Shown: in pieces, positions 1,703 through 47,160 of the stretch
Layout of the letters: each line of letters opens with the position of its first letter
Numbering within the stretch: the first letter of the stretch is position 1
Assembly (NCBI GenBank): GCA_035697485.1
Contig: DASSCU010000024.1
Location: 124,001-188,000, forward strand
Source of the DNA: Actinomycetota bacterium
GTDB taxonomy: Bacteria; Actinomycetota; UBA4738; HRBIN12
Reading direction: 5' to 3'
DNA length: 64,000 nucleotides
The notes under the pieces: generated by a model
What the model was told of the DNA's origin: nothing
What the model saw: only the letters and a program-made list of their open reading frames with translations
The model's database searches: none
Made by a program: the position numbers and the translations under genes

Positions 1703-1783
1703 GCTCGCGTCGGTACTCGGACCCGCACGGTCTGCCGCGGATATCGCACATCGAGGGCATGGCTTCTGCGAGAATCGCAGCCC

Positions 1784-3402: not shown

Positions 3403-3412
3403 ACCGCCGGGC

Positions 3413-5358: not shown

Positions 5359-5374
5359 CGATATCAGCTCCCAT

Positions 5375-5498
5375 CGCAGGCAGGGGTTCGGTCCTGCGGG
5401 TCGACTCGTGATCCCCCCAGCGGCTCCGGTCAGCCGGCCCGAGCCACCACGTGCACGCGACGATGGTATCGAAGCAAGGTCCCAACGCTCACGGGACC
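5375..5498. promoter_or_regulatory. Divergent mmsA/hsp20 promoter region with two short dyads
   Basis: The 199-bp space between the two divergent starts contains CGCAGG/CCTGCG (5375-5380 and 5393-5398) near mmsA and GGTCCC/GGGACC (5478-5483 and 5493-5498) near hsp20. Neither a CIRCE nor a HAIR heat-shock operator is recognisable. Six-base arms are weak evidence in DNA this GC-rich. Confidence 0.2.
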
Positions 5499-5557
5499 GT
5501 CGACCGACGGATCGCACGAAGCCGGACGTACGGTGGCGGTGAGAGGAGGTGAGTTCC

Positions 5558-6037: not shown

Positions 6038-6056
6038 GCGGTCGGTCGGGTCGGCC

Positions 6057-19018: not shown

Positions 19019-19027
19019 TGGTGGCGC

Positions 19028-19375
19028 ATGGGCATCCGGGCATCGACCGTGCGAGCGTTCACCCTCTCGCTCCCCGAGACCGAGGAGCGCGAGACGTGGG
19101 AGACCGCCACGTTCCGCGTCCGGAGCAAGATCTTCCTGATGTTCAGCGAGCAGGAACGCCATGCGTGGATCAAGTCGATCCACGACGAACAGCGCGCGCT
19201 GATCGCGATGGACGCGGACGCGTGGTTCGCCCCACCCTACGTCGGTCCGAGCGGTTGGGTCGGCGCCGTGCTCTCGAAGACCGACGGCGACGAGGTGCGC
19301 GAGCTGATCGTCGAGGCATGGCGCATGACGGCACCCAAGCGTCTCGTCGCGTCCTTCGACGAGGGGAAGGCATGA
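19028..19375 (+). CDS. MmcQ/YjbR-family small protein
   Basis: This 115-residue protein fits the MmcQ/YjbR family (double-stranded DNA-binding-like fold): FTLSLPETEERETWETATFRV at the start, a central IFLMF strand, and ending with the helix ELIVEAWRMTAPKRL. It sits 9 bp after soxB and 4 bp before soxD, so it is co-transcribed with sarcosine oxidase, an unusual location. Its function here is unknown; a cyclic or small-molecule-binding role and a DNA-binding role are both possible. Confidence 0.75.
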   Translation: MGIRASTVRAFTLSLPETEERETWETATFRVRSKIFLMFSEQERHAWIKSIHDEQRALIAMDADAWFAPPYVGPSGWVGAVLSKTDGDEVRELIVEAWRMTAPKRLVASFDEGKA

Positions 19376-19379
19376 CGCC

Positions 19380-19667
19380 GTGCTGCTGATCCCCTGCCCG
19401 TGGTGCGGCCCCCGCGAGGAGATCGAGTTCCGCTACGGCGGGCAGGCGCACGTGAGCTACCCGGCCGATCCCGAGACCCTCACCGACGAGGAGTGGGCCG
19501 ACTACCTCTTCATGCGCGACAACCCTCGGGGCTGGTGGTCGGAGCGCTGGATGCATACAGCCGGATGCCGCCGCTGGTTCAACCTCACGCGGAACACGGC
19601 CACGAACGAGATCGGGGCCGCGTACCGCGTCGGCGAGGCGCCCCCCGGCGAGGCAGCGGACCGGTGA
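19380..19667 (+). CDS. soxD: Sarcosine oxidase delta subunit (locus 1)
   Basis: This 95-residue protein has the zinc-binding pattern of SoxD: C-P-W-C-G at residues 6-10, then H60 and C64 in MHTAGCRRWF. SoxD is a small structural subunit that binds zinc and helps hold SoxA and SoxB together. The GTG start is 4 bp after the MmcQ-like stop. The middle (ADPETLTDEEWADYLFMRDNPRGW) matches the family, and the protein is slightly longer than the locus 2 copy. Confidence 0.92.
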   Translation: MLLIPCPWCGPREEIEFRYGGQAHVSYPADPETLTDEEWADYLFMRDNPRGWWSERWMHTAGCRRWFNLTRNTATNEIGAAYRVGEAPPGEAADR

Positions 19668-19770
19668 CGGCCGTCAGGGCATCGCGAGGGTGCGCCGGCC
19701 CGCTGAGCGTGGGTCGCCATCTCGGGCTCCCTTCACTGGCACGGAGCCGCGCCGGCCTGAGGAGAGCCGC

Positions 19771-22467: not shown

Positions 22468-23014
22468 GGCGTTCGAGCGGGACCCGTTGGCATCGCGCGT
22501 CGGCGATCTCGCAGCGGTCGCGGAGCGAACAGGCGGGCGCGTGACGCTCGAGCACGCCCCCTTCCTCGCGCAGGTCTCACTGCGGCTCGATCCCTCGCTC
22601 ACCGGACGCGCGCCGTACCCGATCCCGCTCGAGCCGAACACCGTGTGGGAAGACGGCTCGCGTGCGGTGCTCTGGCTCGGCCCCGACGAATGGCTCGTGC
22701 TCGGACCGCCGCACGCGAGCGCCGAGATCGCCGGTGAGCTCCGGACGGCACTCGATGGATCACATCGCTCGGTGATCGACGTGAGCTCGAATCGCGTCGC
22801 GATCGAGCTCGGCGGTCCGGGTCGGTTCGACCTGCTCGCGAGCGGGTGCTCGATCGACCTGCACCCACGAACGTGGCACCGAGGGATGTGCGCGCAGACG
22901 CTCTTCGCCAAGACCCAGGTGATCCTGCACGAGCGAGCCGATACGACCCGCGTGCTCGTGCGACCGTCGTTCGCCGACTACCTGCTGGACCGGTCGATCG
23001 CTGGCCTCGCCTAG
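22457..23014 (+). CDS. soxG: Sarcosine oxidase gamma subunit (locus 1)
   Basis: This 185-residue protein matches SoxG: PIPLEPNTVWEDGSRAVLWLGPDEWLVLGP, then the VIDVSSNRVAIELGGPGRFDLLASGCSIDL segment and a C-terminal FADYLLDRSI. The gamma subunit is related to the tail of GcvT and packs against the folate domain of SoxA. The GTG at 22457 overlaps the soxA stop. This closes the soxB-mmcQ-soxD-soxA-soxG operon; glyA and folate genes that often follow are not present here. Confidence 0.88.
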   Translation: MTAEAFERDPLASRVGDLAAVAERTGGRVTLEHAPFLAQVSLRLDPSLTGRAPYPIPLEPNTVWEDGSRAVLWLGPDEWLVLGPPHASAEIAGELRTALDGSHRSVIDVSSNRVAIELGGPGRFDLLASGCSIDLHPRTWHRGMCAQTLFAKTQVILHERADTTRVLVRPSFADYLLDRSIAGLA

Positions 23015-29574: not shown

Positions 29575-29575
29575 C

Positions 29576-29809
29576 TCAGGGACCCTCGATCGCGTTCGTC
29601 CGGGTGTCGCGGGTCACGCTCGTCCACGTGCGGCAGCCCATCGCGTGGAACCATCGCTCGCGCTGCGAGCCCTCGGGGTTCTCGGGCAGGTAGACGCGGG
29701 CGAAGTCGGCCTCCGTGTCGGGGGCATCGAGCTCGCGCCACTCGCCGCCGAACGAGAACTCCGTGAACGGCCGGGGGCCGCAGTGGGCGCAGGGGATCTC
29801 GATCGCCAC
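29576..29809 (-). CDS. soxD: Sarcosine oxidase delta subunit (locus 2)
   Basis: This 77-residue protein is a compact SoxD: C-A-H-C-G at residues 7-11 and H55/C59 in WFHAMGCRTW provide the zinc ligands. RVYLPENPEGSQRERW is the family core. It follows the PYROXD2-like gene by 9 bp and precedes soxA by 1 bp, so the subunit order in this operon is D-A-G-B instead of B-D-A-G. Confidence 0.9.
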   Translation of the reverse strand: MAIEIPCAHCGPRPFTEFSFGGEWRELDAPDTEADFARVYLPENPEGSQRERWFHAMGCRTWTSVTRDTRTNAIEGP

Positions 29810-32726: not shown

Positions 32727-33602
32727 TCAGGCTTCGAGGAGGGCGAGCATCCGCTCTTGCCACTCGACGGTCGCGGCGACCTGGTTGAACGTGAAGAGGT
32801 GCAGGGTTTCGATGTGTGCGCTCGGGTCGGCGAACGCAGGGGCCATCCCCTCGAGCAGCGCGTCGGGCCCGAACTTCCCCGGGGTGATCAAGTGGCCCAC
32901 CATACGCTTGTTCTTCTTCAGGTAGCGCGCGCTGTCGGCGATGCCGATGCGGGCGCTGATCGTCATGAGCTTGGCCATGTCGGCCACGCCCGGGGTGCCG
33001 AGGTGCACGGCGAGAGCTACCCCCTGGCGACGCATCTCGGCGATCCACCGCACGATCGCATCGGGGTTAAAGCACATCTGCGTCGCCATGTACGACACGT
33101 ACCGCTGCTTCTCGAGCAGCACCTCGAGCAGGCGTTGATCGCTGATGTCGCCGTGGCCCTCGGGGTAGCTCGGCGATCCGATCGCCTCGAACGGGTGGCC
33201 CAGCTCGTCCATCGCACGGAGCAGGGCCAGTCCATCGTGGAACTCGCCCGGGTCCTTGGCATCACCCCCCACCACGAACGCCTCGCGGACCCCGGCCTCG
33301 CGGCACCGGTCGAGGAGCGCACCGAGGTGCGCACGGTCTCGGATCATGTGGGCCGACAGGTGCGGCACCACGTCGTGCCCGACGGCCGCCAGCTGCTCGG
33401 CGAGCTCGATCGTGGACTCGATGCCGTGGCTCGGCGACGCGGTGACCGTGACCGTGGCGCCGTCGGGCAGGGCCTCGGCCGCGTCGAGCGCGTTCTTCAA
33501 CGGGATCAGCTCGAACTTCGGCGCCGCCACGAGCGAACGCAGCGCGGCGCGCTGCTCCTCGGGGAGCACGCCACCACGTCGTCTGCCGAGCCTCACCGCC
33601 AC
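32727..33602 (-). CDS. metF: Methylenetetrahydrofolate reductase-family protein
   Basis: This 291-residue protein has the TIM-barrel pattern of MTHFR: FELIPLKN, the folate/FAD segments TVTASPSHGIES and PHLSAHMIRD, and the central EAFVVGGDAKDPG. The canonical enzyme interconverts 5,10-methylene-THF and 5-methyl-THF. As last gene of the corrinoid operon it could oxidise methyl-THF made by the methyltransferase pair. The GTG at 33602 follows GGAAGG and is preferred to one 6 nt later. The protein is shorter and divergent from biosynthetic MetF, which is in keeping with a dedicated catabolic form. Confidence 0.82.
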   Translation of the reverse strand: MAVRLGRRRGGVLPEEQRAALRSLVAAPKFELIPLKNALDAAEALPDGATVTVTASPSHGIESTIELAEQLAAVGHDVVPHLSAHMIRDRAHLGALLDRCREAGVREAFVVGGDAKDPGEFHDGLALLRAMDELGHPFEAIGSPSYPEGHGDISDQRLLEVLLEKQRYVSYMATQMCFNPDAIVRWIAEMRRQGVALAVHLGTPGVADMAKLMTISARIGIADSARYLKKNKRMVGHLITPGKFGPDALLEGMAPAFADPSAHIETLHLFTFNQVAATVEWQERMLALLEA

Positions 33603-33690
33603 CTCGTTCCACCTTCCACGTGACCGCCGGACATGATGACGTATCGGCCGGCCGCGCCGTGAACCCGAGCCGGACCCCCGGTCATCCCGG

Positions 33691-35256
33691 TCACACGTTC
33701 GAGTCCGGGAAGCTCGCCTTCTTCCGCTCGATCCACTCGCGAAGCTCCTCGTCCTTCGCCTCGTCGATCGGCGGCGCCTCGTACTCGGCCAGCATGCGCT
33801 TCCAGACGGTGTTCGCACGCATCGCAGCGTCCAGCGATCCCTCGAGTTCCCATTGCTCGAACGAGTTGTTGTCGGCGATCTCGGACCGGTAGAACGCGGT
33901 CTCGAAGTTCGCCAGCGTGTGCGCGGTGCCGAGAAAGTGCTGCCCGGGGCCGTTCTCGACGATCGCGTCGACCGCCTGGCCGTTCGGCGAGAGGTCCATG
34001 CCCTTGGCGAGGGCGTGCATCTGCCCGCACTGGTCCAGATCGAGCACGAACTTCTCGTAGCCCATCGCGAGCCCGCCCTCGAGCCAGCCCGCGGCGTGCA
34101 GCACGAAGTTCACGCCGGCGAGGATCGTGGGCTGCAGCGTGTTCGCCGACTCGTACGCGGCCTGCGCGTCGGCGACCTTCGAGGCGGTGAGCGAGCCGCC
34201 GCTGCGGAACGGGACCTCGAGCCTGCGGGCGCAGGCGGCGAGCGCGTACAGCACGAGCGCAGGCTCCGGCGTTCCGAACGTCGGCGCCCCCGACTGCATC
34301 GACATCGACGACGCGAACGAACCGAAGACCACCGGCGCACCAGGGCGCACCAGCTGCACGTAGGCCATGCCCGCGAGGGCCTCGGCGAGCGTCTGGGTCG
34401 CGGCACCGGCGGCGGTCGCCGGGCTCATCGCCCCCGCGAGGATGAACGGCGTCATGATCACGGCTTGGTTCGCCTCCGCGTAGGCCTTCGCGGCGCCCAG
34501 CATGATCGTGTCCCACACGAGCGGCGAGTTCGCGTTGATCAGGCTCAGCACGTGCGGCTGCGCTTCGAGCGCGTCGGCGCCGAACAGGATGCGGGCCATC
34601 TCGACCGTATCCTGGGCCCGTTGGGGGTGGGTCACCGAGCCCATGAACGGCTTGTCCGAGTAGCGCATGTGCGCGTACACCATGTCGTAGTGCCGCTTGT
34701 TCACGGGCAGGTCGACCGGTTCGCACACGGTGCCGCCGGAGTGGTGCAGGTAGGGGGTGGCAGAGGCGAGCTTCACGAAGTTCCGGAAGTCCTCGATCGT
34801 GCCGTAGCGGCGTCCGCCGTCGAGGTCACGCACGAACGGCGAGCCGTATGCCGGGGCCAGGACGGTCGCGGCGCCGCCGATGTGCACGGTGTTGGCCGGG
34901 TTCCGGGCGACCTGGTCGAACTCACGCGGAGCGGCGGCCTGCACGAGCTGGCGAGCGAGCCCACGAGGGAACCGCACGCGCTCGCCGTCGACGTCACATC
35001 CCGCACCCTTCAGCAGCTCGAGCGCGTCAGGCGCCTCGCGGAACTCGATACCGACCTGTTCGAGGATCGTGTCGGCGTTGTGCTCGATCGTCGCGAGGCC
35101 TTCCTCGCTCACCATCTCGACCGGCGTGAGTTCCCGGGTGATGAAGGGCACCCGTTCGGCGACCGCGGCGAGGCGTGCGGCCGCGCGTCCCTCCCGTCCG
35201 CCGGTGCGACGCCGGCGCGGTGTCGCCTCGGACGTGGCTCCGGTGTCGTCGCTCAT
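33691..35256 (-). CDS. mttB: Non-pyrrolysine MttB-superfamily methylamine:corrinoid methyltransferase
   Basis: This 521-residue protein matches trimethylamine/betaine methyltransferases (COG5598): HIGGAATVLAPAYGSPFVRDLDGG, SGGTVCEPVDLPVNKRHYDMVYAHM and MGYEKFVLDLDQCGQM. No in-frame UAG is present, so it is a pyrrolysine-free member like glycine betaine methyltransferase MtgB. It would move a methyl from a quaternary amine to the Co(I) of the corrinoid protein encoded upstream. The ATG overlaps the activator gene stop (ATGA). Glycine betaine is the leading substrate because of the nearby transporter and DMG/sarcosine enzymes; proline betaine, carnitine and others are possible. Confidence 0.9.
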   Translation of the reverse strand: MSDDTGATSEATPRRRRTGGREGRAAARLAAVAERVPFITRELTPVEMVSEEGLATIEHNADTILEQVGIEFREAPDALELLKGAGCDVDGERVRFPRGLARQLVQAAAPREFDQVARNPANTVHIGGAATVLAPAYGSPFVRDLDGGRRYGTIEDFRNFVKLASATPYLHHSGGTVCEPVDLPVNKRHYDMVYAHMRYSDKPFMGSVTHPQRAQDTVEMARILFGADALEAQPHVLSLINANSPLVWDTIMLGAAKAYAEANQAVIMTPFILAGAMSPATAAGAATQTLAEALAGMAYVQLVRPGAPVVFGSFASSMSMQSGAPTFGTPEPALVLYALAACARRLEVPFRSGGSLTASKVADAQAAYESANTLQPTILAGVNFVLHAAGWLEGGLAMGYEKFVLDLDQCGQMHALAKGMDLSPNGQAVDAIVENGPGQHFLGTAHTLANFETAFYRSEIADNNSFEQWELEGSLDAAMRANTVWKRMLAEYEAPPIDEAKDEELREWIERKKASFPDSNV

Positions 35257-37277
35257 GTGCTGCTCCTCTCGGGTTCGCTGGTGCGTCCGCGGCGACGGGG
35301 ACGGTCGCCCGGCGAGACGATGCGCCGTGGCGGGAGATCGACGACGGCGCCCAACCGCGGGAACGGATCGGTGGCGTGCGGGATGCCCATCGCCCCGACG
35401 AAGTGCTCCTGGAACCGCGGTTCCACCGCGGTCTCCAGCTTCTCCACGCGCCGCACGACGGCCTCGATCTCCTCGCGGGAGGCGCGGTTCAGCAGCGCGA
35501 TGCGGGCGCCGGTGCCGGCGGCGTTCCCGGCGCTCGTGACGTGCTCGGGGTCGCAGTCGGGCACGAGCCCGAGCACCATCGCGTGGACCGGGTCGATGTG
35601 GGCGCCGAACGCGCCGGCCAGCCGGATCCGGTCGACGGTCTCGATGCCGAACGCGTCCATCAAGAGGCGGCACCCGGCGTACAGGGCTCCCTTCGCGAGC
35701 TGGATCTGCCGCACGTCGTTCTGCGTGATCACGAGACGCGGGGCTCCCGGCACATCGTGCAGCACGTAGGAGAACGTCCGCCCGTCGGCCTCGATGCGTT
35801 CGCTCCGATCGGCGAGGGAACCGTCGATCGCGCCGTCGGTGGTGACCACGCCCGCGAGGAAGAGCTCCGCGATCGCCTCGATGATGCCGCTGCCGGCGAC
35901 CCCGGTCACGGTGGTCGCGTCGAACCCCGCCTCGTCGCTCCACCGATCGTCGCCGATCACCCGGAACCGCGGCTCCAGGGTCTCGCGATCGATGCGGACG
36001 CGCTCGATCGCCCCCGGCGCCGCGCGCTGCCCGCAGGAGATCTGCGCGCCCTCGAACGCCGGACCGGTCGGGCTCGACGCGGCGAGCAGCCGGTCGCGGT
36101 CGCCGAGCACGATCTCCGCGTTCGTGCCGACGTCGACGATGAGGTTCACCACGGCCTGGTCGTGCGGCGCCTCGGAGAGGATCACGCCGGCGGTATCGGC
36201 GCCCACGTGTCCGGCGATGCACGGCAGCACGTACACGCGCGCTCCGGCGTTCGTCGTCGTGAGATCGAGCTCGAGTGCACCACGATGCACGGCCTCGTCG
36301 GTGACGAGGGCGAACGGCGCGCCCCCCAACTCGGTCGGATCCAGACCGAGGAACAGGTGGTGCATGATCGGGTTGCCGACGACCGTGAGCTCGAGCACGT
36401 CGATCACGTCGGCCCCTGCCTGCGCGCACAGGTCGGCGATCATGCCGTCGACGCAGGCTCGGATCGCGGCGGTCAGCTCAGACTCGGACCCCGGATGCAT
36501 CATCACGTAGCTCACGCGGCTCATCAGGTCCTCGCCGAACCGGATCTGCGGATTCATCGACCCGGCGCTCGCGAGCACCTGCCCCGTGTGCAGGTCGCAC
36601 AGGTGCCCGGCCACCGTGGTCGAGCCCACGTCGAACGCCACCCCGAGTGCCACGTCGTGAAACCCCGGCCACATCGCGGTGATCGTCGTCCCGTCGTGAA
36701 CGGCCACCGTGACCTTCCAATCGCCGGACCGCAGGAGGCGTTGCAGCGATGTGAGCACATGCGGGTCGCAGGCGAGGTCCGCGAGCCCCCAGTCGCGCTC
36801 GAGCGCGCCCATCAGGCGTTGCAGGTCGCCGCTCGGGTCCGCGAGATCGGGCTCACGCACCTCGACGTAGTGCAGCCGAACGACCGGATCGACCTCGATC
36901 GGGTGCGCATCGGCCTCCTTGCGCACGACCTGACGATGCAGCTGGCTCTCGGGCGGCACATCGACGACGAGATCGTCGCTCACGCGCGCATGGCACCCGA
37001 GGCGCCGGTCGGCGGCGAGGCCGGATCGTTCCCGATAGCGCGCCTCGGGTTCACTGAACGGGGTCAGGTGGTCGGCGCGCGACGTGATGCCGTGCTTGGC
37101 GAACTCGCCCTCGGCGACGACGACCTGGCATCGCCCGCAGATACCACGGCCACCGCAGACGGAGTCGAGGTCGACCCCGAGCGAGCGGGCGGCATCGAGC
37201 AGGTTCGTCCCGTCGGCGATGCGGCCCCGCTTCCCCGAGGGCGTGAAGACGACGAGCGAGCCCTCGGCCTCGGTCAC
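35253..37277 (-). CDS. Reductive activator of corrinoid proteins (RACE; DUF4445/ASKHA domain)
   Basis: This 674-residue protein has an N-terminal plant-type [2Fe-2S] ferredoxin with C41, C47, C50 and C95, a linker, and a large C-terminal ASKHA ATPase domain (from about 215, GVAFDVGSTTVAGHL; FDVGSTT phosphate loop and later NLIVDVGTNAE). This is the RamA/RACE type that uses ATP to reduce inactive Co(II) back to Co(I). It lies between the folate methyltransferase and MttB, overlapping both by 4 bp. The ATP-driven reduction is known from anaerobes; here it must work in a cell that also makes H2O2. Confidence 0.9.
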   Translation of the reverse strand: MTEAEGSLVVFTPSGKRGRIADGTNLLDAARSLGVDLDSVCGGRGICGRCQVVVAEGEFAKHGITSRADHLTPFSEPEARYRERSGLAADRRLGCHARVSDDLVVDVPPESQLHRQVVRKEADAHPIEVDPVVRLHYVEVREPDLADPSGDLQRLMGALERDWGLADLACDPHVLTSLQRLLRSGDWKVTVAVHDGTTITAMWPGFHDVALGVAFDVGSTTVAGHLCDLHTGQVLASAGSMNPQIRFGEDLMSRVSYVMMHPGSESELTAAIRACVDGMIADLCAQAGADVIDVLELTVVGNPIMHHLFLGLDPTELGGAPFALVTDEAVHRGALELDLTTTNAGARVYVLPCIAGHVGADTAGVILSEAPHDQAVVNLIVDVGTNAEIVLGDRDRLLAASSPTGPAFEGAQISCGQRAAPGAIERVRIDRETLEPRFRVIGDDRWSDEAGFDATTVTGVAGSGIIEAIAELFLAGVVTTDGAIDGSLADRSERIEADGRTFSYVLHDVPGAPRLVITQNDVRQIQLAKGALYAGCRLLMDAFGIETVDRIRLAGAFGAHIDPVHAMVLGLVPDCDPEHVTSAGNAAGTGARIALLNRASREEIEAVVRRVEKLETAVEPRFQEHFVGAMGIPHATDPFPRLGAVVDLPPRRIVSPGDRPRRRGRTSEPERSST

Positions 37278-38218
37278 GACGGCGGAGACACCTCCGGCGG
37301 CTCTCCCTGGGGTACGGTCCGGCGCCCGGCACGGCCCCCCCGGCGTCGTCCGCCGGCCGAGCCCGCCTCGCTGCGGCCTTCACCGTAGCGTCTGATCCAG
37401 GCCGCGGCGTGCGCGTCGGCGCCCATCAGCACGTCGGCCGCCATCACAGCCTGGCGCACCTCTTCGTGCAGCGGCGACGTGATCGCGCTCGTCATGCCGT
37501 TCGCGATCGCCATCGCGAGGAACGCGCCGTTCAGCCCGTTGCGGTTCGGCAGGCCGAAGGAGACGTTCGAGGCGCCGCACGTCGTGTTCACGCCGAGCTC
37601 GTCGTGCAGCCGCCGCACGAGCGCGAACACCTGCCGCCCGGCGGTGCCCATCGCCCCCACCGGCATCACGAGCGGATCGACCACGATGTCGTGGGCGGGG
37701 ATGCCGTGATCGGCGGCCGCGCGCACGATCTTCTCGGCGACGGCGAACCGCACGTCGGGGTCCTCGCTGATGCCGGTCTCGTCGTTCGTGATCGCGACGA
37801 CCGCCGCGCCGTGCCTGGCGACGAGCGGCAGCACCGAGTCGATACGGTCGTCCTCCCCGGTGACCGAGTTCACCAGCGGCTTGCCCTCGTAGGCCGCCAG
37901 GCCGGCCTCGAGCGCGCCCACGATCGACGAGTCGATCGAGAGCGGCACGTCGGTGAGCGACTGCACGAGCCTCACGGTCTCCGCGAGGATCGCCGGCTCG
38001 TCGGCGAGCGGGATGCCCGCGTTGACGTCGAGCATGTGGGCCCCGGCGGCCACCTGCGCCTGGGCGTCGGCGATCACGGTCGTGAAGTCCCCCGCCGTCA
38101 TCTCCTCGGCGAGCTTCTTCCGGCCTGTCGGGTTGATGCGCTCCCCGATGATCACGAACGGCCGGCCGATGCCGATCACGACCTCGCGGGACGCGGAGCT
38201 GACGACGGTCTCGGCCAC
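37274..38218 (-). CDS. Methyltetrahydrofolate:corrinoid methyltransferase (pterin-binding)
   Basis: This 314-residue TIM-barrel protein matches the pterin-binding family (MtgA/MtrH/AcsE-like): PFVIIGERINPTGRKKLAEE, MLDVNAGIP (folate-binding Asp/Asn), SIDSS, GKPLVNSVTGE and NTTCGASNVSFGLPNR. It would transfer the methyl from the corrinoid protein to THF. The last 40 residues (GGRRRGGRAGRR) are basic and disordered and not in the catalytic fold; they may be a tether. The GTG start is 2 bp after the PF13769 stop and its stop overlaps the activator start. Confidence 0.9.
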   Translation of the reverse strand: MAETVVSSASREVVIGIGRPFVIIGERINPTGRKKLAEEMTAGDFTTVIADAQAQVAAGAHMLDVNAGIPLADEPAILAETVRLVQSLTDVPLSIDSSIVGALEAGLAAYEGKPLVNSVTGEDDRIDSVLPLVARHGAAVVAITNDETGISEDPDVRFAVAEKIVRAAADHGIPAHDIVVDPLVMPVGAMGTAGRQVFALVRRLHDELGVNTTCGASNVSFGLPNRNGLNGAFLAMAIANGMTSAITSPLHEEVRQAVMAADVLMGADAHAAAWIRRYGEGRSEAGSAGGRRRGGRAGRRTVPQGEPPEVSPPS

Positions 38219-38220
38219 CG

Positions 38221-38574
38221 CTATCCGTCCTCGCCCGACGGACGCACGACATCGCCGGCGCCGCTCACGTCGGCCCCGCCCTGCACACCGCCGGCCCGGA
38301 TCGTGGCCCTCAGCGCGTCCTCATCCCACTCGGAGAGGATCTTCACGGTCTCGGTGTCGACCTCGTGCTGGAGATCGTCGCCGCACTCCCGCGTGTCCAT
38401 GCGCATCTGCTCCGTGTAGTCGTCGGAACCGATCAGTCCTGCCACCATCGCCGCGGCGTCGACGGCTTCCTGGAAGCGGTCGGGCAGCAGCGCCCGGGCG
38501 CTCTCGCCGCCCTCGCCGCGAGCGAGGACCTGCATCGGAATATCGCGCCACCGGATCACCGTCAGCTCTGCCAC
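38221..38574 (-). CDS. PF13769 small protein (named virulence factor in databases)
   Basis: This 117-residue protein fits the small family labelled Virulence_fact (PF13769): MAELTVIRWRDIPMQVLARG, RFQEAVDAAAMVAGLIGSDDYTEQ and HEVDTETVKILSEW. The name is historical; I know of no demonstrated virulence role. From memory, homologues occur beside methyltetrahydrofolate methyltransferases and MttB proteins. Here it lies inside the corrinoid operon, 2 bp before the methyltransferase. It has one Cys and no metal motif. A partner or scaffold of the corrinoid protein is possible but unproven. AAGGGG precedes the GTG. Confidence 0.72.
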   Translation of the reverse strand: MAELTVIRWRDIPMQVLARGEGGESARALLPDRFQEAVDAAAMVAGLIGSDDYTEQMRMDTRECGDDLQHEVDTETVKILSEWDEDALRATIRAGGVQGGADVSGAGDVVRPSGEDG

Positions 38575-38616
38575 GCATGCCCCTTCCTGATCATGTCGGG
38601 CCTCGTGGACCTCGGG

Positions 38617-39318
38617 CTAGGACGCCGTCGCGGCCGCGCGCTTGGCCATCACGAGCGCCTGCGCGGTCTCGGCCGCCACCGCCGCGTCGCGGCAGTAGGC
38701 ATCGGCGCCCACGGCCTTGCCGAACTCCTCGTTCAGCGGCGCGCCGCCGACGAGCACGATGTACTTCTCCCGCAGGCCCTTCGCCTCGAGCTCGTCGATC
38801 ACGACCTTCATGTAGGGCATCGTGGTGGTGAGCAGCGCGCTCATGCCCAGGATGTCGGGCTCGTGTTCCTCGAGCGCCGCGAGGTAGCCCTCGACCGGGT
38901 TGTTGATGCCGAGGTCGATCACGTCGAACCCGGCGCCCTCGAGCATCATCGCGACGAGGTTCTTGCCGATGTCATGGATGTCGCCCTTCACGGTGCCGAT
39001 CACCACGGTGCCCATGCGCTCGGCGCCGGTCTCGGCCAGCAGCGGCCGCAGCACCTCCATTCCGGCCTTCATCGCGTTGGCGGCCAGCAGGACCTCGGGC
39101 ACGAACAGGATGCCGTCGCGGAAGTCGATGCCCACGATGCGCATGCCTTCAACCAGCGCGTCGTTCAGGACCTTGTCGGCCGGCCATCCACGTTGCAGCA
39201 GGATGTTCGTGCCCTCGAAGATCTCCTCCGCCAACCCGTCGTAGAGGTCGTCGTGCATCTGCTTGACGAGCTCGTCGTCGGGAAGTCTCGAGAGATCGAG
39301 CTCCTCCTCGTCGGTCAT
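38617..39318 (-). CDS. Corrinoid (B12-binding) methyl carrier protein
   Basis: This 233-residue protein has an N-terminal four-helix cap (about 10-95) and a C-terminal cobalamin-binding Rossmann domain with the His-on motif D113-x-H115-x-x-G118 (KGDIHDIGKNLV) and GGAPL near residue 191. It is of the MtbC/MtgC/MtmC type that carries the methyl group between MttB and the folate methyltransferase. A strong GGGAGG lies 5 nt before the ATG. It follows the DMGDH-like gene by 21 bp. Confidence 0.93.
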   Translation of the reverse strand: MTDEEELDLSRLPDDELVKQMHDDLYDGLAEEIFEGTNILLQRGWPADKVLNDALVEGMRIVGIDFRDGILFVPEVLLAANAMKAGMEVLRPLLAETGAERMGTVVIGTVKGDIHDIGKNLVAMMLEGAGFDVIDLGINNPVEGYLAALEEHEPDILGMSALLTTTMPYMKVVIDELEAKGLREKYIVLVGGAPLNEEFGKAVGADAYCRDAAVAAETAQALVMAKRAAATAS

Positions 39319-39339
39319 GTCGCCTCCCTCACCGCGCTC

Positions 39340-41817
39340 TCACACCTTCTGCCGTTCGCCTTTGGGATCCCAGAGCGGCTCGTTCGTCACCGTCGCCGCG
39401 AGCCGATCGCCGAAGTACTCCACCTCCATCGGTGTGCCCTCGACCGCCAGCTCCGCCGGCAGGTAGCCGTAGACGATGCCGCGCCCGATCGAGTACCCGT
39501 AGTTCGCGCTGGTCACGTACGACACGACGCGGCCGTCGTGCCACAGCGGCTCCTTGCCCATCACCACCGCGCGATCGTCGTCGAGCGTCAGGCAGCTGAG
39601 TCGCTGCGCAGGGCCGCCGGCGTCGCGGATCGCCTCGAGCGCCGCCTTCCCCGTGAAGTCCTTGTCCCATCGCACCGCGAAACCGAGCCCTGCCGCCAGC
39701 GGGTCGTGCTCGGCGTCGATGTCCTGCGCCCAGAGCCGGTAGCCCTTCTCCAGCCGGAGCGAGTCGAAAGCGCCGGCGCCGGCCGCGACCAGCCCGTGCT
39801 CGCGCCCCGCCTCCCAGAGCACGTCCCAAGCCCGCTGCCCCATCGCGATCTGGCCGTAGAGCTCCCAGCCGAGCTCGCCCGCGTAGCTGATGCGCTGGGC
39901 CCACACGGGCGTGACCTCGCCGATGCTCAGGTAGCGCGCCGTCAGGTACGGGAACGCTCCGTTCGACACGTCGACGTCCGTCACCGCCTGCAGCACGTCG
40001 CGGGCCCTCGGCCCCCACAGGCCGAGCGCGAACAACGACCCGGTACGGACCGTGATGTGCACGCGTTCCTCCTCGCGGATCTGCGATCGCAGGAAGGCCT
40101 CGTCGTGATGACCCGACCCGCCGCCCGTCACGACGCGGAACCGGCCCGCTCCCTTGCGGGTGACGGTCAGGTCGAGCCTGATGCCGCCCCGCTCGGTGAG
40201 GGCCGCGGTGTAGACGACCGATCCCACCGGCTGGTCGATGCGGTTCGCGAACACCCGCTCGAGGTAGTCGAGCGCATCCGGACCGGTCACGTCGAATTTC
40301 GCGAAGGGCGTGATATCGAACAGGGCCACCCCGTGCCGGGTGGCGAGGTGCTCGGCGCCGACCTCGGCAGACCATCCGCGCGCCGCCCAGCCCGTGCGTC
40401 GCGCCCACTCGTGCGTGGCGCCACCCACCAGCTCTCGGTTCGCCGCGAACCACTGGGGCCGTTCCCACCCCGCACCCTGGAAGAACTCGGCGCCGAGCGT
40501 CCGCTGACGCTCGAAGAACGGGCTCAGCTTGAGTCCGCGCGGCTTCGACGGCTGCTGCAGCGGATGGATGATGTCGTAGACCTCGCGGTACTGTTGCTTC
40601 CCGCGTTCGACCACGTACGGCGCCGACGTCTGGAACGGGTAGAACCGGTTCGCGTCGGCCTCCGCCAGGTCGTAGCTGGGCGAGCCCTCGACCATCCACT
40701 CGACCGCTTGGCGGGCCATGCCGCCGGCGTGCGTCACCCACACCGCTTCGCAGACCCAGAAGCCTCGCACCTCGGCGCTCTCGCCCACGATCGAGCCGGC
40801 GTCGGGCGTGAACGAGAACATGCCGTTCAGCGTGCGAGCCGGGTCGCTCGGACGCATGTACCCGGCGAGCGCGGGGAACATCCTCGCGGCCTCCGTCTCG
40901 CACAAGTCGAAGTCGTCGGGGGTGAACGGCATCAGCGACGGCGGCATCGAGAGACCGGGTCGACGGATGTCGCGTTGCGGCGTGACGATCGGCTCGTGGC
41001 GGTAGTTCCCGACGCCGTAGTGATCATCGCGCTGGCGGAAGTACAGCGACATGTCTTGGTGGCGGACCACCGGCTGCCGCGCCCAGGTGTCGCCGTCCAT
41101 GCCGGCCAGCTCGGGGATCGGATCGGTCCACACGAGCTGGTGCTGCACCGCCACGAGCGGGATCGGCACGCCCGCGAGCGCGCCGACCGACGGTCCCCAG
41201 ATGCCGGCGCAGAGCAGCACACGCTCGCACTCCACCGTGCCGCGATCGGTCTGCACCCCGCACACCCGACCCTCGCGGATGTCGAACCCGGTGACGGTGA
41301 CCTCGCCCTCGAACCCGACACCGGCGGCCTGTGCCTTCCGCGCGAGCGCCTCGACGATCTTCACGCCCCTGCCCGCGCCGTCGCTCGGCACCCAGTACGC
41401 GCCGAGGATCGACGACGGGTCGAGGAGCGGCGAACGCTCGGCGGCTTCGGCGGGGCTCAGCAGCTCGGTCCCTTCGAGACCGAAGGAACGCGCGAACCCC
41501 TGACGACGCTTCAGCTCCTGCATGCGCTCGACGGTCGTGGCGACCTCGAGGCCCCCCACGCCGTACCAGACGCGTTCGCCGTCGAGGTCGAGGGAGTCGT
41601 ACAGGGCGACCGAGTCCCGCGCGATCCTGCACATCGCGCGGGACCCGTTCGTCTGGAAGATGATGCCCGGCGCGTGGCTCGTCGACCCGCCCGTCTCGAA
41701 CAAGGGTCCTTGCTCGAGCACGAGCACGTCGTTGACACCGAGTTCGGTCAGGTGATAGGCGGCGGAGACGCCGACGATGCCGGCGCCGATGATGACGGTC
41801 TGCGCGCGATCCCGCAT
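39340..41817 (-). CDS. Dimethylglycine dehydrogenase-like FAD + GcvT protein
   Basis: This 825-residue protein joins an N-terminal DAO-type FAD domain (GAGIVG, 11-16; H48 in GSTSHAPG, the covalent FAD position of DMGDH/SDH) to a C-terminal GcvT folate domain (about 430-825; VALFDITPFAKFDVTGPDAL). Such enzymes demethylate dimethylglycine or sarcosine and hand the methylene to THF. It is first in the corrinoid operon, so the product of MttB action on glycine betaine would be its substrate. The ATG at 41817 is chosen because the FAD motif begins there; the longer frame adds 73 non-homologous residues. Confidence 0.88.
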   Translation of the reverse strand: MRDRAQTVIIGAGIVGVSAAYHLTELGVNDVLVLEQGPLFETGGSTSHAPGIIFQTNGSRAMCRIARDSVALYDSLDLDGERVWYGVGGLEVATTVERMQELKRRQGFARSFGLEGTELLSPAEAAERSPLLDPSSILGAYWVPSDGAGRGVKIVEALARKAQAAGVGFEGEVTVTGFDIREGRVCGVQTDRGTVECERVLLCAGIWGPSVGALAGVPIPLVAVQHQLVWTDPIPELAGMDGDTWARQPVVRHQDMSLYFRQRDDHYGVGNYRHEPIVTPQRDIRRPGLSMPPSLMPFTPDDFDLCETEAARMFPALAGYMRPSDPARTLNGMFSFTPDAGSIVGESAEVRGFWVCEAVWVTHAGGMARQAVEWMVEGSPSYDLAEADANRFYPFQTSAPYVVERGKQQYREVYDIIHPLQQPSKPRGLKLSPFFERQRTLGAEFFQGAGWERPQWFAANRELVGGATHEWARRTGWAARGWSAEVGAEHLATRHGVALFDITPFAKFDVTGPDALDYLERVFANRIDQPVGSVVYTAALTERGGIRLDLTVTRKGAGRFRVVTGGGSGHHDEAFLRSQIREEERVHITVRTGSLFALGLWGPRARDVLQAVTDVDVSNGAFPYLTARYLSIGEVTPVWAQRISYAGELGWELYGQIAMGQRAWDVLWEAGREHGLVAAGAGAFDSLRLEKGYRLWAQDIDAEHDPLAAGLGFAVRWDKDFTGKAALEAIRDAGGPAQRLSCLTLDDDRAVVMGKEPLWHDGRVVSYVTSANYGYSIGRGIVYGYLPAELAVEGTPMEVEYFGDRLAATVTNEPLWDPKGERQKV

Positions 41818-41854
41818 GCCTCGCAACTCCCGCTCCGGGCGACCGCGCCATGGT

Positions 41855-41874
41855 CCCACGGCCGAGTGCGTGGG
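41855..41874. promoter_or_regulatory. Inverted repeat upstream of the corrinoid operon
   Basis: CCCACG (41855-41860) and CGTGGG (41869-41874) with an 8-nt spacer lie about 40 bp before the DMGDH-like ATG. It may be an operator. No clear -35/-10 pair was found in this 103-bp space. Confidence 0.25.
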
Positions 41875-41920
41875 CAACACCAGGGTCGCGCGATGCGCAA
41901 CCGCCCCGGACTGGCCCGGA

Positions 41921-42919
41921 TCACCGCTCCGAGGTGGGCGAGGCTTCCTCGATGTGATCGGGCGTGTGGTGCACGGCGGGAACCGATCCGAGCCGGCCCG
42001 CCTGGAAGTCCTCGAACGCGGTGAGGAGTTCGTCACGAGTGTTCATCACGAAGGGTCCGTACCATGCGACGGGTTCACGGATCGGACGACCGCCGAGCAC
42101 GAGCACCTCGAGCTCTGGCGCTCGAGAAGCCTGCTTCGCCGAGGCCGCGACGCGCAGGCCGTCGCCGGCGCCGAACACCGCGAGCTGCCCCATCTCGATC
42201 GGCCTCGCCTCGGCACCGACCGACCCCGACCCCGCCAGCACGTAGGCGAGTGCGTTGTACGACGGATCCCACGGCAGATCGAGCGTCGCGCCCGGCGAGA
42301 GCGTCGCGTGCAACAACGTGATCGGCGTGTAGGTGTCGCCGGGACCCGGATGCCCGGCGAGCGATCCCGCGATCACGCGCACGAGTGCCCCGCCGTCCGT
42401 CGACGCGAGCAGGCCGACCTCGGCCGCCCGAAGGTCCTGGTAACGCGGGGGCGCCCACTTCTCGGCTTTCGGCAGGTTCACCCACAGCTGGATGCCGTGG
42501 AACAGGCCTCCGCTCACGACCAGCCGTTCCGGCGGCTTCTCGATGTGCAGGATGCCGGCCCCGGCCGTCATCCACTGTGTGTCGCCGTTCGTGATCGTGC
42601 CGCCGCCGCCGTTCGAGTCCTCGTGCTCGAAGGTGCCGTCGATGATGTAGGTCACGGTCTCGAACCCGCGGTGCGGGTGCCAGGGCGTGCCCTTCGGCTC
42701 GCCGGGTGCGTACTCGACCTCCCCCATCTGATCCATGTGGATGAACGGGTCGAGGTCCGCGAGGTCGACACCCGCGAAGGCACGACGCACCGGGAATCCC
42801 TCGCCCTCGAACCCTGCTGGGGCGACGGTGACCGCCTTCACGGGTCGCTGCACGAGGGTGACGTCGAACGTCGGAACCCTGGCGAGGGTGGTGATGTCAT
42901 CGACGGTGACTGCGGGCAT
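41921..42919 (-). CDS. Pirin-family cupin protein
   Basis: This 332-residue bicupin protein has the pirin metal site: H-P-H-R-G-F-E-T (about residues 78-85) and GGLFHGIQLWVNLPKAEK. The N-terminal half is the conserved pirin domain; the C-terminal half has the second cupin. Some pirins are quercetin 2,3-dioxygenases and others redox-sensing regulators; which applies here is not clear. The ATG at 42919 follows GGAGGAGGGG. An upstream palindrome suggests local control, so it is probably transcribed on its own ahead of the corrinoid operon. Confidence 0.9.
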   Translation of the reverse strand: MPAVTVDDITTLARVPTFDVTLVQRPVKAVTVAPAGFEGEGFPVRRAFAGVDLADLDPFIHMDQMGEVEYAPGEPKGTPWHPHRGFETVTYIIDGTFEHEDSNGGGGTITNGDTQWMTAGAGILHIEKPPERLVVSGGLFHGIQLWVNLPKAEKWAPPRYQDLRAAEVGLLASTDGGALVRVIAGSLAGHPGPGDTYTPITLLHATLSPGATLDLPWDPSYNALAYVLAGSGSVGAEARPIEMGQLAVFGAGDGLRVAASAKQASRAPELEVLVLGGRPIREPVAWYGPFVMNTRDELLTAFEDFQAGRLGSVPAVHHTPDHIEEASPTSER

Positions 42920-42957
42920 GGACCCCTCCTCCGAAACGTCCTCACGACCGGAGAACG

Positions 42958-42977
42958 ATACTTGCGTCCGCAACTAT
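42958..42977. promoter_or_regulatory. Operator-like palindrome upstream of pirin
   Basis: Nine-base arms ATACTTGCG (42958-42966) and CGCAACTAT (42969-42977) pair at 8 of 9 positions around TC. It lies 38 bp before the pirin ATG on the minus strand. Dyads like this serve MarR/HxlR- or TetR-type repressors. No such regulator gene is adjacent. Confidence 0.45.
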
Positions 42978-42997
42978 TCCCCGACGCGTCGAAGACG

Positions 42998-43029
42998 GAA
43001 GAGGACGGCCCCGTCGGGCCGCCCTCTTC
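42998..43029 (-). terminator. Terminator of the betaine importer operon
   Basis: A strong stem-loop: GAAGAGG-A-CGGCCC (42998-43011), loop CGTC, then GGGCCG-C-CCTCTTC (43016-43029); 13 pairs with one mismatch. It lies 15 bp past the stop of the receptor gene. Confidence 0.75.
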
Positions 43030-43044
43030 ATCGTTTGCCGGCCG

Positions 43045-44064
43045 TCAGGACGCGGCTGGCAGCCACCCCTGCACGGTGTCCTGGTTCGCGTCGATCCACG
43101 TCTGCGCGGCTTCGGCGGGATCCGTCCCCTCCTGGATCGCGAGGGCGACCTCGTTCTGATCCTCCTCGGTCCACTGGAAGTTCGAGAAGAACTCGAACGC
43201 CGCCGCGTCCTTGCTCTCGAGCTCGGCGCTGAACGCCTTGTAGAGCACGTCCTCCGCGTAGTCGCAGTCGTAGCCGACCGCGGCATCGGGATCCTCGGCC
43301 GCGATCGTCTCGCACTCCTCGTCGTACGCCGGGAGTTCGACCTCGACGAGGTCGTACTTCGCGTTCGCCCATTGCGGCGTCCACCAGTACATCAGGATGG
43401 GCTCCTGCGCGTTGTAGGCCTTGTCGAGCGCCGCGAGCGAGGCGGCCTCGGACCCGCTGTAGACCACCTCGAGATCCAGGCCGAGGCTGGAGATGATCGC
43501 CTCGTCGAAGATCGAGTAGGTCGTGTCCGCCCCGAGGAACCGGCCCTTGTCGCCGGTCTCTGCGGTCGCGAACGCGTCGGCGTTCTCCTTGAACCCTTCC
43601 CAGGTGCCGAAGTCCGGGTTCTCCTCGACGACGTAGGACGGCGTGAACCACCCGATGTTGCCGACGATGCCGAGCTCGCCGCCGTCGACGACCGTCCCTG
43701 CACCGTCGATGTAGTCCTTGCGGTCCTTCAGGTGCCCGGACGGCCACACCTCGAGGGTCGCGTCGACGTCGCCGTCGGCCATCGCCGGGAACTGACCCGA
43801 CTCGTTGATCTCCTGCAGCTCGACCGTGCAGCCCATCTCGCTCTCCATGACGGTCTGCGCCACGGCGGCGTTCGCCTCGGCGCCAACCCACGGGTTGACC
43901 GCGATCGTGATCGTGTCGCTGCCGCACTGCGCAACCGATGCCGAATCGGTGCCGCCGCCTCCGCCGGTGTCGCCGCCGCCCTCTTCCACGTCGCTGCATG
44001 CGGCGAGGACGAGCGTGGCGACCGCGACCGCCGACACCCCCCACGCGAACCTGTGCTTCCTCAT
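43045..44064 (-). CDS. proX: Glycine betaine-type ABC transporter substrate-binding lipoprotein
   Basis: This 339-residue lipoprotein has a signal peptide ending LVLAAC23 and a Gly-rich linker. The mature part matches OpuAC/Pro[30 protein letters not shown] and [12 protein letters not shown]. Trp residues W59, W107, W139, W227 and W232 could form the aromatic box that holds a trimethylammonium group. This supports a quaternary amine ligand such as glycine betaine; TMAO or choline cannot be excluded. Its ATG overlaps the permease stop (ATGA). Unusually, it comes last in the operon. Confidence 0.88.
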
Positions 44065-46127
44065 CCGTTCTCCTCTCCCTGGTCTCCCTGGTCGTCTTCG
44101 ACCGTCTTCGTGATCGCCCGCACCCGGAACCACCAGCCGAGCCCCATCCCCACGGGACCCCGCATCGATTTCGGTGCCGACCCCATCGCTTGAGTTATAC
44201 GGTCGAGAACGATGGCGAGGAGCAGGATGCAGACGCCTGCGACCACACCTCGCCCGATCTGCTGCTTCCCGAGCGCGAACACGACCTCCTGTCCCAGCCC
44301 CGCCGCGCCGATCAACCCGGCGATGATCACGACCGACAAGGCCATCATGATCGTCTGGTTCACGCCGAGCAGGATCGTGGGCCTGGCGAGGGGTAGCTGC
44401 ACCTTGCGCAGCAACTGATTCTGCGTGCAGCCGAACGACCGCCCGGCCTCCACGATCTCGTTCGGCACCTGGCGGATGCCGAGGTTCGTCAGCCGGATGC
44501 CCACGGGCAACGCATAGATGACCGATGCGATGATCGCCGGCACCCGACCGGGCTCGACGAGGAACAGGACGGGCACGAGATAGACGAAGGCGGGCATGGT
44601 CTGCATCGCATCGAGGATCGGCTTCGAGATCTGCTCGAACCGATCGTTGCGGGCCGCGAGGATGCCGAGCGGGATCGCGAACAACAAGGTGATGGCCACC
44701 GCGACCAACACCTGCGCGAGGGTGCCCATCGACAGATCCCACATGCCGAGGAACCCGAGGGCGGCGATGCACGCGAACGATCCGATCGCCAGTCGCCACC
44801 CCGAAACGCGCCAGCCGATCAACGCGAAGGCGCCGGCCATCATCCACCACGGCACCCCCACGAACAGCGACTGGATCGGGTCGAGCAGGTACACGAGGAT
44901 GAAGTCGGCGATGGCACTCGTGATGTCGCCGAGGTTGGTCTGCGACCACTCCACAATCGCGTTCGCCGGCGTGGCCACCGAGAACTCCCACTCCTCGAGG
45001 AACGACTGCTGTCGCAGCACTTCTCGGCCGATCACGACGGCGACGACGGTGATCAGGAGCGCAGCCACCGCGAGTTGCCCTCGCGTGAGGGTTCGACCGC
45101 CGATGCGGACCGGCTTCGTGTGTTGACGCTCGCGCTTGCTCCACGCGGTCGTGACCCGATCCAGCACGATCGCCATGACCACGATCGCGATGCCGCCGTT
45201 GAGGGCCTCACCCACGTTGAGCTGCTGGAGACCGTCGAGCACCGTCTGACCCAACCCTCCGGCGCCGACGAAGGCGGCGATGACCACGATGCCGAGAGCC
45301 ATCATGATCGTCTGGTTCACCCCGAGCATGATCGAGGGCTTGGCGAGCGGCACCTGCACGAGCCGAAGGCGTTGGCGCTCGGTCGACCCGAACGACGTGG
45401 CCACCTCCAGCGAGGTCTCGGGCACCCCTCGGATGCCGAGCGCCGTGAGACGGATCGCGGGCGGGAGCGCGAACGCGAGCGTGGCCATCAACGCCGGGGG
45501 GTTCCCGATCCCGAACAGGAGCACGGCAGGAAGCAGATAGGCGTAGGCGGGGATCGTCTGCATCGCGTCGAGGATCGGCCGCAGCACGCGCTCGACCCTC
45601 GGGCGGCGGCCCGCCCAGATACCCACAGGCACGCCGATCGCGATCGCCACGGAGACCGAGACCAGGACCAGCGCGAGCGTCTCGATCGCGGCGTCCCATA
45701 CGCCGAGCAGTCCGAACGACAGCACGCCCGCAGCGGTCAGCACGGCCATCTTCCAGCCGGCCAGCACACCGGCCAGGGCGGCGGCCCCCACCACGAGTCC
45801 GAACCACGTGAGTCGCTCCAGCGCGGTGACCGTCGCGTCGACGAGCGTGTCCACCGTGTTCTCGATCGGGGTCAGGAAGTAGGTGAACAAGGGGCTGGTC
45901 GTGCGGTTCTGGATCGCCCAGTCGCGGAACGCGTCGAACCACGCCGTGACGTCGACGACCCAGCTTTCCGGGAACCCGGGCCGCAGCCAGACGTAGCCGA
46001 TCGCCACCACGACGACGCCGACCGCTCCCCAGGCGAGCCGGCGGGGCCACGGGTTGACCGGTCGCTCAGGCGCGAGGGGCAGGGTCGGCCGGTCCGCGAC
46101 ACGCGAGCGAGGAGGCGCGACCGCCAT
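44061..46127 (-). CDS. proW: Glycine betaine-type ABC permease, two permease domains fused in tandem
   Basis: This 688-residue membrane protein contains two complete ProW-like halves (about 45-345 and 355-665). Each ends with an EAA loop and the near-identical [11 protein letters not shown] segment: [25 protein letters not shown] in the first, [25 protein letters not shown] in the second. Normally one permease gene makes a homodimer; here both halves are in one chain. The halves are diverged, so the fusion is not recent. Both flanking genes touch it (1-bp gap upstream, 4-bp overlap downstream). Confidence 0.9.
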
Positions 46128-46128
46128 G

Positions 46129-47160
46129 TCAGCGTTCCTCGACCAGCGCGGCCATCACCGCGTTTCGATCCACGAGACCGACGAGATCTTCGCCCTCGAC
46201 CACCCGGATCGTACGTTCGGCGTCGGCGACCATCGGGATGAGGTCCTGCACCACCGTCGTCGGGGCGACCGTCGGTCCCTCGATCGCTCCGTGCCCGTTC
46301 ACTGGCTTCATGATCGCCCGAGCGGTCAGCACGTGGGCTCGCGGAACATCCTTCGTGAAGTCGGAGACGTAATCGTCGGCCGGGTGTGCGACGACCTCCT
46401 CCGGCGTGCCGACCTGCACGAACGCGCCGTCCTTCATGATCGCGATGCGGTCACCGAGCTTGAGGGCCTCGGCCAGGTCGTGGGTGATGAAGATCATCGT
46501 CTTCTTCATCTCGTTCTGCAGGCGGCGTACCTCGTTCTGCATGTCCCGTCTGATGAGTGGGTCGAGCGCGCTGAACGGCTCATCGAACAGCATGATCTCC
46601 GGGTCGGTGGCAAGGGCGCGCGCGAGGCCGACGCGCTGCTGCATCCCGCCCGAGAGCTCGTCGGGGAACCGATCGCCCCATCCTCCGAGCCCGACCACGT
46701 CGAGCACCTCCGTGGCCTTGGCGAGCCGAGCGTCCTTTTCCGTTCCCTGGATCTCGAGGCCGAACGCGACGTTGTCGACGATGCGACGGTGCGGCAGCAA
46801 CCCGAAGTGCTGGAAGACCATGCTGATCTTGGTTCGTCGCACGGTGCGGAGCTCGTCATCGTTCATCTGCATGACGTCGCGTCCGTCGACGAGGATCTCT
46901 CCCGCGGACGGATCGTGGATGCGGTTCAGCATGCGGACGAGCGTGGACTTCCCCGAGCCGGACAGGCCCATGACCACGAAGACCTCGCCCTGTCCCACAT
47001 CGAACGAGATGTCCCTGACCGCGGCCACGCACCCGGTCTTCGCCAGCAGTTCGGCCCGCGGCAGGTCGGCATCGGGCGTGCCCACGATGCGGTCTGCCTT
47101 GGGTCCGTAGACCTTCCACACGTTGCGACACGAGACCGTGGCGTTCGGCGTCTCGGCCAA
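46129..47160 (-). CDS. proV: Glycine betaine-type ABC transporter ATPase
   Basis: This protein of about 343 residues has Walker [19 protein letters not shown], Walker [14 protein letters not shown] and HDLAEAL. The ProV/OpuAA insert ([21 protein letters not shown]) lies before Walker A and a single CBS-like segment is at the C-terminus (about 285-343). The likely start is a TTG at 47160, preceded by GGGAGGGGG and by a promoter at 47217-47245; the longer frame would begin upstream of that promoter. It is the first gene of the importer operon. Confidence 0.88.

What the first reader, a model, noticed from the sequence alone, without database searches (positions are those of the whole stretch)
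32727..47160. Complete corrinoid quaternary-amine demethylation system in an aerobic actinobacterium-like genome
Seen: genes for a betaine-type importer, DMGDH-like enzyme, corrinoid protein, PF13769 protein, pterin methyltransferase, RACE activator, non-Pyl MttB and MetF, all on one strand. The seven-gene unit 41817 to 32727 has gaps of 88 bp or less and two 4-bp overlaps. Known: MtgB/MtgC/MtgA systems serve anaerobes such as Desulfitobacterium and Acetobacterium, which feed methyl-THF into Wood-Ljungdahl. Inference: here MetF could oxidise methyl-THF, and DMGDH-like and SoxBDAG enzymes capture the other two methyls, so all three betaine methyl groups end on THF and glycine remains. I am not aware of a characterised actinobacterial example.
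Basis: partly seen in the sequence, partly recalled or inferred. Interest (0 to 1): 0.85.

Follow-up and report, generated by a model that had tools for sequence, protein, structure and literature searches.

The report
Aerobic actinobacterial betaine demethylation operon
An oxygen-using actinobacterium carries one compact set of genes that very probably strips all methyl groups off glycine betaine with a vitamin-B12 enzyme system; the kind of system was described in aerobic marine Proteobacteria in 2025, but this version has its own gene make-up and points to an overlooked small protein that always travels with it.

Summary
The mechanism proposed is well supported: the MttB groups with D. hafniense MtgB, not Pyl-MttB; the first gene matches dimethylglycine oxidase; the MetF's closest solved relative is the SYK-6 enzyme reported to oxidise methyl-THF; the genome has two haem-copper oxidase genes and no acetyl-CoA synthase. 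But the novelty claim fails: aerobic MtgB/C/D betaine demethylation with RamA and MetF2 was shown in Ruegeria pomeroyi in 2025 (PMC12478193), and this MttB clade is widespread in aerobic Pseudomonadota, Chloroflexota, Acidimicrobiia and about 6% of sampled Actinomycetota. Different here: DMG oxidase inside the operon, SYK-6-type MetF, no DUF1638 in the cassette, intact separate MetH. One finding looks unreported: PF13769 ('virulence factor') is present in 35 of 35 complete cassettes and, in Actinomycetota, almost only there (Fisher p 6e-28). Verdict: new variant of a known system. Biochemical activity is inferred, not shown.

The parts
39340..41817 (-). dimethylglycine oxidase/dehydrogenase-like protein (DAO + FAO_M + GCV_T + GCV_T_C), 825 aa
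   Evidence: Pfam; best solved relative N,N-dimethylglycine oxidase 1pj5, 732 bits over full length, against 430 for human DMGDH; FAD-site His (TSHAPG), H225, Y259 and the Asp that is Ala in the 3gsi entry are all kept (roles of these residues from memory)
38617..39318 (-). corrinoid protein (MtgC-like), 233 aa
   Evidence: B12-binding_2 + B12-binding; DIHDIG, SAL and VGG motifs; NCBIfam best NF047996 MtgC 210 bits, below its cut-off 370
38221..38574 (-). PF13769 ('Virulence_fact') protein, 117 aa, function unknown
   Evidence: 55.6 bits, cut-off 25; in 35 of 35 complete cassettes; AF2 model pLDDT 84, no fold match in PDB at E<=0.001
37274..38218 (-). methylcorrinoid:THF methyltransferase (MtgD/MtgA-like), 314 aa
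   Evidence: Pterin_bind, NF005719 353 bits over cut-off 259; relatives in PDB: MetH folate domain and CFeSP methyltransferase
35253..37277 (-). RACE, reductive activator of corrinoid proteins, 674 aa
   Evidence: Fer2 + RACo linker, middle and C-terminal domains; CGGRGICGRC cluster motif; best solved relative RACo 3zyy
33691..35256 (-). non-pyrrolysine MttB-family methyltransferase (MtgB-like), 521 aa
   Evidence: PF06253 745 bits; 62% identical to S. meliloti 4yyc, 44% to D. hafniense MtgB 9yce, 25% to Pyl-MttB; tree
32727..33602 (-). divergent MTHFR (SYK-6 type MetF), 291 aa
   Evidence: PF02219 36 bits, cut-off 24; best by sequence 7xg9 and by fold 7xlf/7xg9, E 2e-18
41921..42919 (-). pirin-family protein between importer and operon; membership unsure
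   Evidence: Pirin + Pirin_C
43045..44064 (-). betaine-type substrate-binding protein
   Evidence: OpuAC; best solved relative TmoX 4xz6, then other betaine/osmolyte binders; next gene set to the operon also in L131
44061..46127 (-). ProW-like permease with two BPD_transp_1 domains
46129..47160 (-). ProV-like ATPase
   Evidence: TIGR01186 367 bits over cut-off 326.6
17870..23014 (+). sarcosine oxidase genes soxB, soxA and soxG with short genes between (possible soxD)
   Evidence: SoxB TIGR01373 600 bits over cut-off 529; SoxA 996 bits (cut-off 1164); SoxG 98 bits (cut-off 144)

Best explanation
A cobalamin-dependent glycine-betaine demethylation pathway in an aerobe. The importer brings in betaine. 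MttB (here an MtgB) moves one methyl from betaine to the cob(I)alamin of the small corrinoid protein, leaving dimethylglycine; the pterin enzyme moves it on to THF; the MetF oxidises 5-methyl-THF to 5,10-methylene-THF; the dimethylglycine oxidase takes the second methyl straight to methylene-THF on its own folate domain, leaving sarcosine; sarcosine oxidase takes the third, leaving glycine. RACE re-reduces the corrinoid when oxygen or chance oxidises it, with ATP. PF13769 probably helps corrinoid reactivation, loading or protection. Shown: gene order, families, conserved residues, relatives, co-occurrence. Inferred: substrate, direction, regulation, all activities.
For: Tree places MttB beside D. 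hafniense MtgB and inside a clade of aerobic cassettes. The operon's own first gene is a full-length dimethylglycine oxidase homologue with the catalytic residues, the enzyme that would use the MttB product. DMG/sarcosine genes lie near 32 of 58 relatives, and next to the same operon in L130 and L131. MetF is nearest to SYK-6 MTHFR, which oxidises CH3-THF. Binding protein keeps the aromatic cage seen in TmoX but has Ile where TmoX has Glu131, the TMAO-binding residue. Two COX1 genes, no CdhC/ACS, Fhs present. Genetics of the close analogue in R. pomeroyi (PMC12478193).
Against: No assay or expression data. MtpB, MtcB, MtyB and R. pomeroyi MtgB sequences could not be put into the tree, so substrate is by neighbours only. 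The corrinoid protein is below the MtgC curated cut-off. 'MetF' is only 30% identical to the SYK-6 enzyme. Only 7 of 58 relatives show an Opu-type importer nearby.
Confidence: 0.75

Rival explanations
1. Same machinery, other first substrate: the MttB demethylates another quaternary amine or osmolyte (proline betaine, carnitine, choline type), and the DMG oxidase is there for a separate flow.
For: MttB paralogues with different substrates share one corrinoid protein in other organisms (stated in PMC12478193); this genome has three further PF06253 genes; importer class binds several osmolytes; a Rieske oxygenase related to carnitine/betaine monooxygenases lies at 478-1644.
Against: DMG oxidase is co-transcribed by position (21 bp gap) and in the same place in L130 and L131; the MttB's nearest characterised relative is a betaine enzyme.
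Confidence: 0.15
2. Dual methionine synthase and betaine demethylase as in R. pomeroyi: corrinoid and pterin proteins also serve homocysteine methylation with an MtgE.
For: A stand-alone S-methyl_trans protein (346 aa) lies on the same contig at G000:C24:66128-66991.
Against: A complete MetH with its own B12-reactivation domain is encoded on contig C43, and no MtgE is in or near the operon.
Confidence: 0.06
3. The methyl flow runs the other way or stays at methyl-THF for methionine, with MetF as an ordinary reductase.
For: MTHFR enzymes usually reduce methylene-THF (general knowledge).
Against: Two other MTHFR genes exist in the genome and score far higher to the MTHFR family; this one is of the SYK-6 type and sits in a catabolic operon.
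Confidence: 0.04

Closest known systems
Aerobic MtgBCD glycine-betaine demethylase of Ruegeria pomeroyi DSS-3 (PMC12478193, 2025)
   Same: PF06253 methyltransferase, small corrinoid protein, separate pterin methyltransferase, RamA/RACE activator, dedicated MetF2, downstream DMG and sarcosine demethylation, aerobic host
   Different: There the genes are scattered, tied to methionine synthesis through MtgE, with DUF1638 named as second reactivation protein and no MetH. Here one seven-gene operon starts with DMG oxidase, lacks DUF1638, has a SYK-6 type MetF, and the genome keeps MetH.
Anaerobic MtgABC of Desulfitobacterium hafniense (9yce/2qne)
   Same: MtgB 44% identical to the window MttB; same three-part chemistry
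   Different: Anaerobe feeding Wood-Ljungdahl; here no CdhC/ACS and two COX1 genes
N,N-dimethylglycine oxidase of Arthrobacter globiformis (1pj5)
   Same: Full-length match, catalytic residues kept
   Different: Here placed in a corrinoid operon
S6MTHFR of Sphingobium SYK-6 (7xg9/7xlf; PMC12585457)
   Same: Closest solved MTHFR by sequence and fold; oxidises 5-CH3-THF in a demethylation pathway
   Different: About 30% identity; partner there is LigM, not a corrinoid system
S. meliloti putative trimethylamine methyltransferase 4yyc
   Same: 62% identical, same clade
   Different: Substrate not reported in the records used; species assignment of 4yyc is from memory

Membership tests
MtgB (non-Pyl glycine betaine:corrinoid methyltransferase) | PF06253 domain over full length, no in-frame amber codon | tested here: met
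   745 bits
MtgB (non-Pyl glycine betaine:corrinoid methyltransferase) | groups with D. hafniense MtgB and not with Pyl-MttB | tested here: met
   SH-aLRT 97-99; TIGR02369 (Pyl type) 252 bits, below cut-off 525
MtgB (non-Pyl glycine betaine:corrinoid methyltransferase) | separate from MtpB, MtcB, MtyB | not testable with these tools
   reference sequences could not be fetched
MtgB (non-Pyl glycine betaine:corrinoid methyltransferase) | betaine-dependent methylation of the corrinoid protein | not testable with these tools
   needs an assay
MtgC corrinoid protein | curated NCBIfam MtgC models | tested here: not met
   210 bits (NF047996, cut-off 370) and 163 (NF047995, cut-off 310); NF047996 is the best-scoring family, but the protein is not filed as that family
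MtgC corrinoid protein | DxHxxG...SxL...GG cobalamin motif | tested here: met
Aerobic MtgBCD system (R. pomeroyi type) | mtgB, mtgC, mtgD and RACE together | tested here: met
Aerobic MtgBCD system (R. pomeroyi type) | DUF1638 reactivation protein | tested here: inconclusive
   absent from the cassette; one copy on contig C62 beside another MttB
Aerobic MtgBCD system (R. pomeroyi type) | dual role replacing MetH | tested here: not met
   full MetH present; the paper itself lists exceptions with both
N,N-dimethylglycine oxidase | DAO plus folate domain with FAD-His, H225, Y259, folate Asp | tested here: met
Canonical MetF (TIGR00676) | curated score | tested here: not met
   40 bits, cut-off 293.7
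RACE / RACo | 2Fe-2S domain, linker, middle and ASKHA C-terminal domain | tested here: met

The most novel reading that the evidence does not exclude
The 'virulence factor' domain PF13769 is an undescribed core part of these corrinoid methyl-transfer systems, needed for loading, protecting or re-reducing the corrinoid in oxygen, and more strictly tied to the cassette than DUF1638.
Probability: 0.5. Interest if true: 0.6.

Novelty: new variant of a known kind. Interest (0 to 1): 0.42.

Why it matters
It extends the aerobic corrinoid route for betaine, one of the commonest osmolytes, to Actinomycetota and Chloroflexota as a self-contained catabolic operon that need not double as methionine synthase. 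It pairs a corrinoid system with a SYK-6 type, methyl-THF-oxidising MetF, so all three methyls could meet at methylene-THF. And it gives a testable role for a domain so far named only 'virulence factor'.

Tried and rejected
In-frame TGA in two MttB paralogues was checked as a possible recoding: the aligned cores are stop-free, so the TGAs lie outside. A PYLIS_3 Rfam match in mttB (E 0.078, below gathering score) is taken as coding similarity, as there is no TAG. Recent transfer or contamination: composition of the stretch matches the rest of the window (0.992) and the other contigs looked at. TMAO as the imported substrate is less likely: the Glu131 of TmoX is Ile here. Fold search for PF13769 found nothing; PADLOC found nothing. 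Promoter/terminator scan no better than shuffles. Papers PMC4217433 and PMC11868366 are not held.

Full report
Observation. The seven-gene unit runs 41817 to 32727 on the minus strand with gaps of 21, 42, 2, -4, -4 and 88 bp. A betaine-type ABC importer (47160-43045) and a pirin gene (42919-41921) lie upstream on the same strand.

Is it more than chance? Yes. In 80 named relatives and 20 Actinomycetota stretches the block corrinoid protein - [DUF1638] - PF13769 - pterin methyltransferase - RACE - mttB - (metF) recurs. L131 (another genus of the same family) has the whole unit, DMG oxidase to MetF, with the importer next to it and sarcosine oxidase genes about 2 kb downstream of metF; L130 has DMG oxidase to mttB. 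In 397 Actinomycetota genomes drawn evenly, 28 have an MttB match at E<=1e-100, 23 of them at about 57% identity or more.

What each part is. MttB: 62% identical to 4yyc (S. meliloti), 44% to D. hafniense MtgB, 25% to Pyl-MttB. In the tree it sits in a 57-row clade (SH-aLRT 98) of Pseudomonadota, SAR324, Chloroflexota, Acidimicrobiia and other Actinomycetota, with MtgB as the nearest characterised outside row; the three other MttB proteins of this genome lie elsewhere (quick tree, some long branches). DMG enzyme: 732 bits to Arthrobacter dimethylglycine oxidase against 430 to human DMGDH; FAD-site His, H225, Y259 and the folate Asp (Ala in the 3gsi entry) are kept (roles of the residues from memory). 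MetF: a divergent MTHFR, below the canonical model's cut-off, nearest to SYK-6 MTHFR by sequence and by fold of the AF2 model (pLDDT 88, E 2e-18). That enzyme oxidises 5-CH3-THF (PMC12585457). RACE, corrinoid and pterin proteins have the expected domains and motifs.

Host. G000 is 3.41 Mb in 64 contigs. It has two COX1 genes over the cut-off, no CdhC/ACS, an Fhs gene, a complete MetH with activation domain and two more MTHFR genes. An aerobic life without Wood-Ljungdahl is inferred from these; the assembly is 95.6% complete.

Mechanism. See best explanation. Steps shown here: gene content, order, conserved residues, kinship, co-occurrence. Steps inferred: betaine as substrate (neighbour genes, MtgB kinship, aromatic cage of the binding protein with Ile for TmoX Glu131), oxidative MetF, ATP-driven reactivation.

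Known or new. Mausz et al. 2025 (PMC12478193) describe the same machinery in aerobic R. pomeroyi by proteomics and mutants, with RamA, DUF1638 and MetF2, and report 5% of ocean mtgC reads as Actinomycetota. Differences here: operon with DMG oxidase, SYK-6 type MetF where Pseudomonadota cassettes often carry a MetF of another type (similar to this genome's C37 copy), no DUF1638 in the cassette, MetH kept. No characterised actinobacterial case turned up in the papers searched.

Overlooked part. PF13769 is in all 35 loci that have corrinoid, pterin and RACE genes; DUF1638 is in 32, missing from L051, L130 and L131. In the 397 Actinomycetota genomes PF13769 occurs in 22, 21 of which have the MttB match (Fisher p 6e-28); the genomes are related, so the p-value overstates independence. 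The accession has no occurrence in the library, and neither Price 2018 (PMC5764234) nor Mausz 2025 names it in the main text; supplements and figures were not seen. Invariant W9, R10, P13, Q15 and a confident model without a known fold give handles. The domain also occurs in B. subtilis, so it is not exclusive to these cassettes across bacteria.

Limits. Substrate specificity within the MttB family was not resolved, because the E. limosum and R. pomeroyi reference sequences could not be fetched. Neighbour counts come from relatives picked by similarity to this MttB and are not independent draws.

Noticed in passing
L091 (G000:C62) 367-6051 +: A second corrinoid set in the same genome: corrinoid protein, pterin methyltransferase, RACE, DUF1638 and an MttB 42% identical to the window's; substrate unknown. 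It holds the genome's only DUF1638.
   Followed up: partly
L003 and L004 (G000:C17, C25): Two more distant MttB-family genes (26-30% identity), the second with a corrinoid protein downstream.
   Followed up: partly
window 478-1644 -: Rieske oxygenase related to carnitine and glycine-betaine monooxygenases (GbcA model 167 bits, cut-off 670; best solved relative carnitine monooxygenase), so the region may hold a second, oxygenase route for quaternary amines.
   Followed up: partly
window 17870-23014 + and 25354-29809 -: Two sarcosine-oxidase-like gene sets, one close to the standard type and one divergent.
   Followed up: partly
window 38221-38574 -: PF13769 protein is near-obligate in these cassettes in several phyla; see novel case.
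   Followed up: yes
window 34092-34191 -: Sub-threshold Rfam PYLIS_3 match (E 0.078) in mttB with no TAG codon; taken as coding similarity.
   Followed up: no
G114 (genome search): A complete actinomycetotal genome has PF13769 and DUF1638 about 0.2 kb apart but no MttB match at E<=1e-100: possibly a cassette with another methyltransferase.
   Followed up: no
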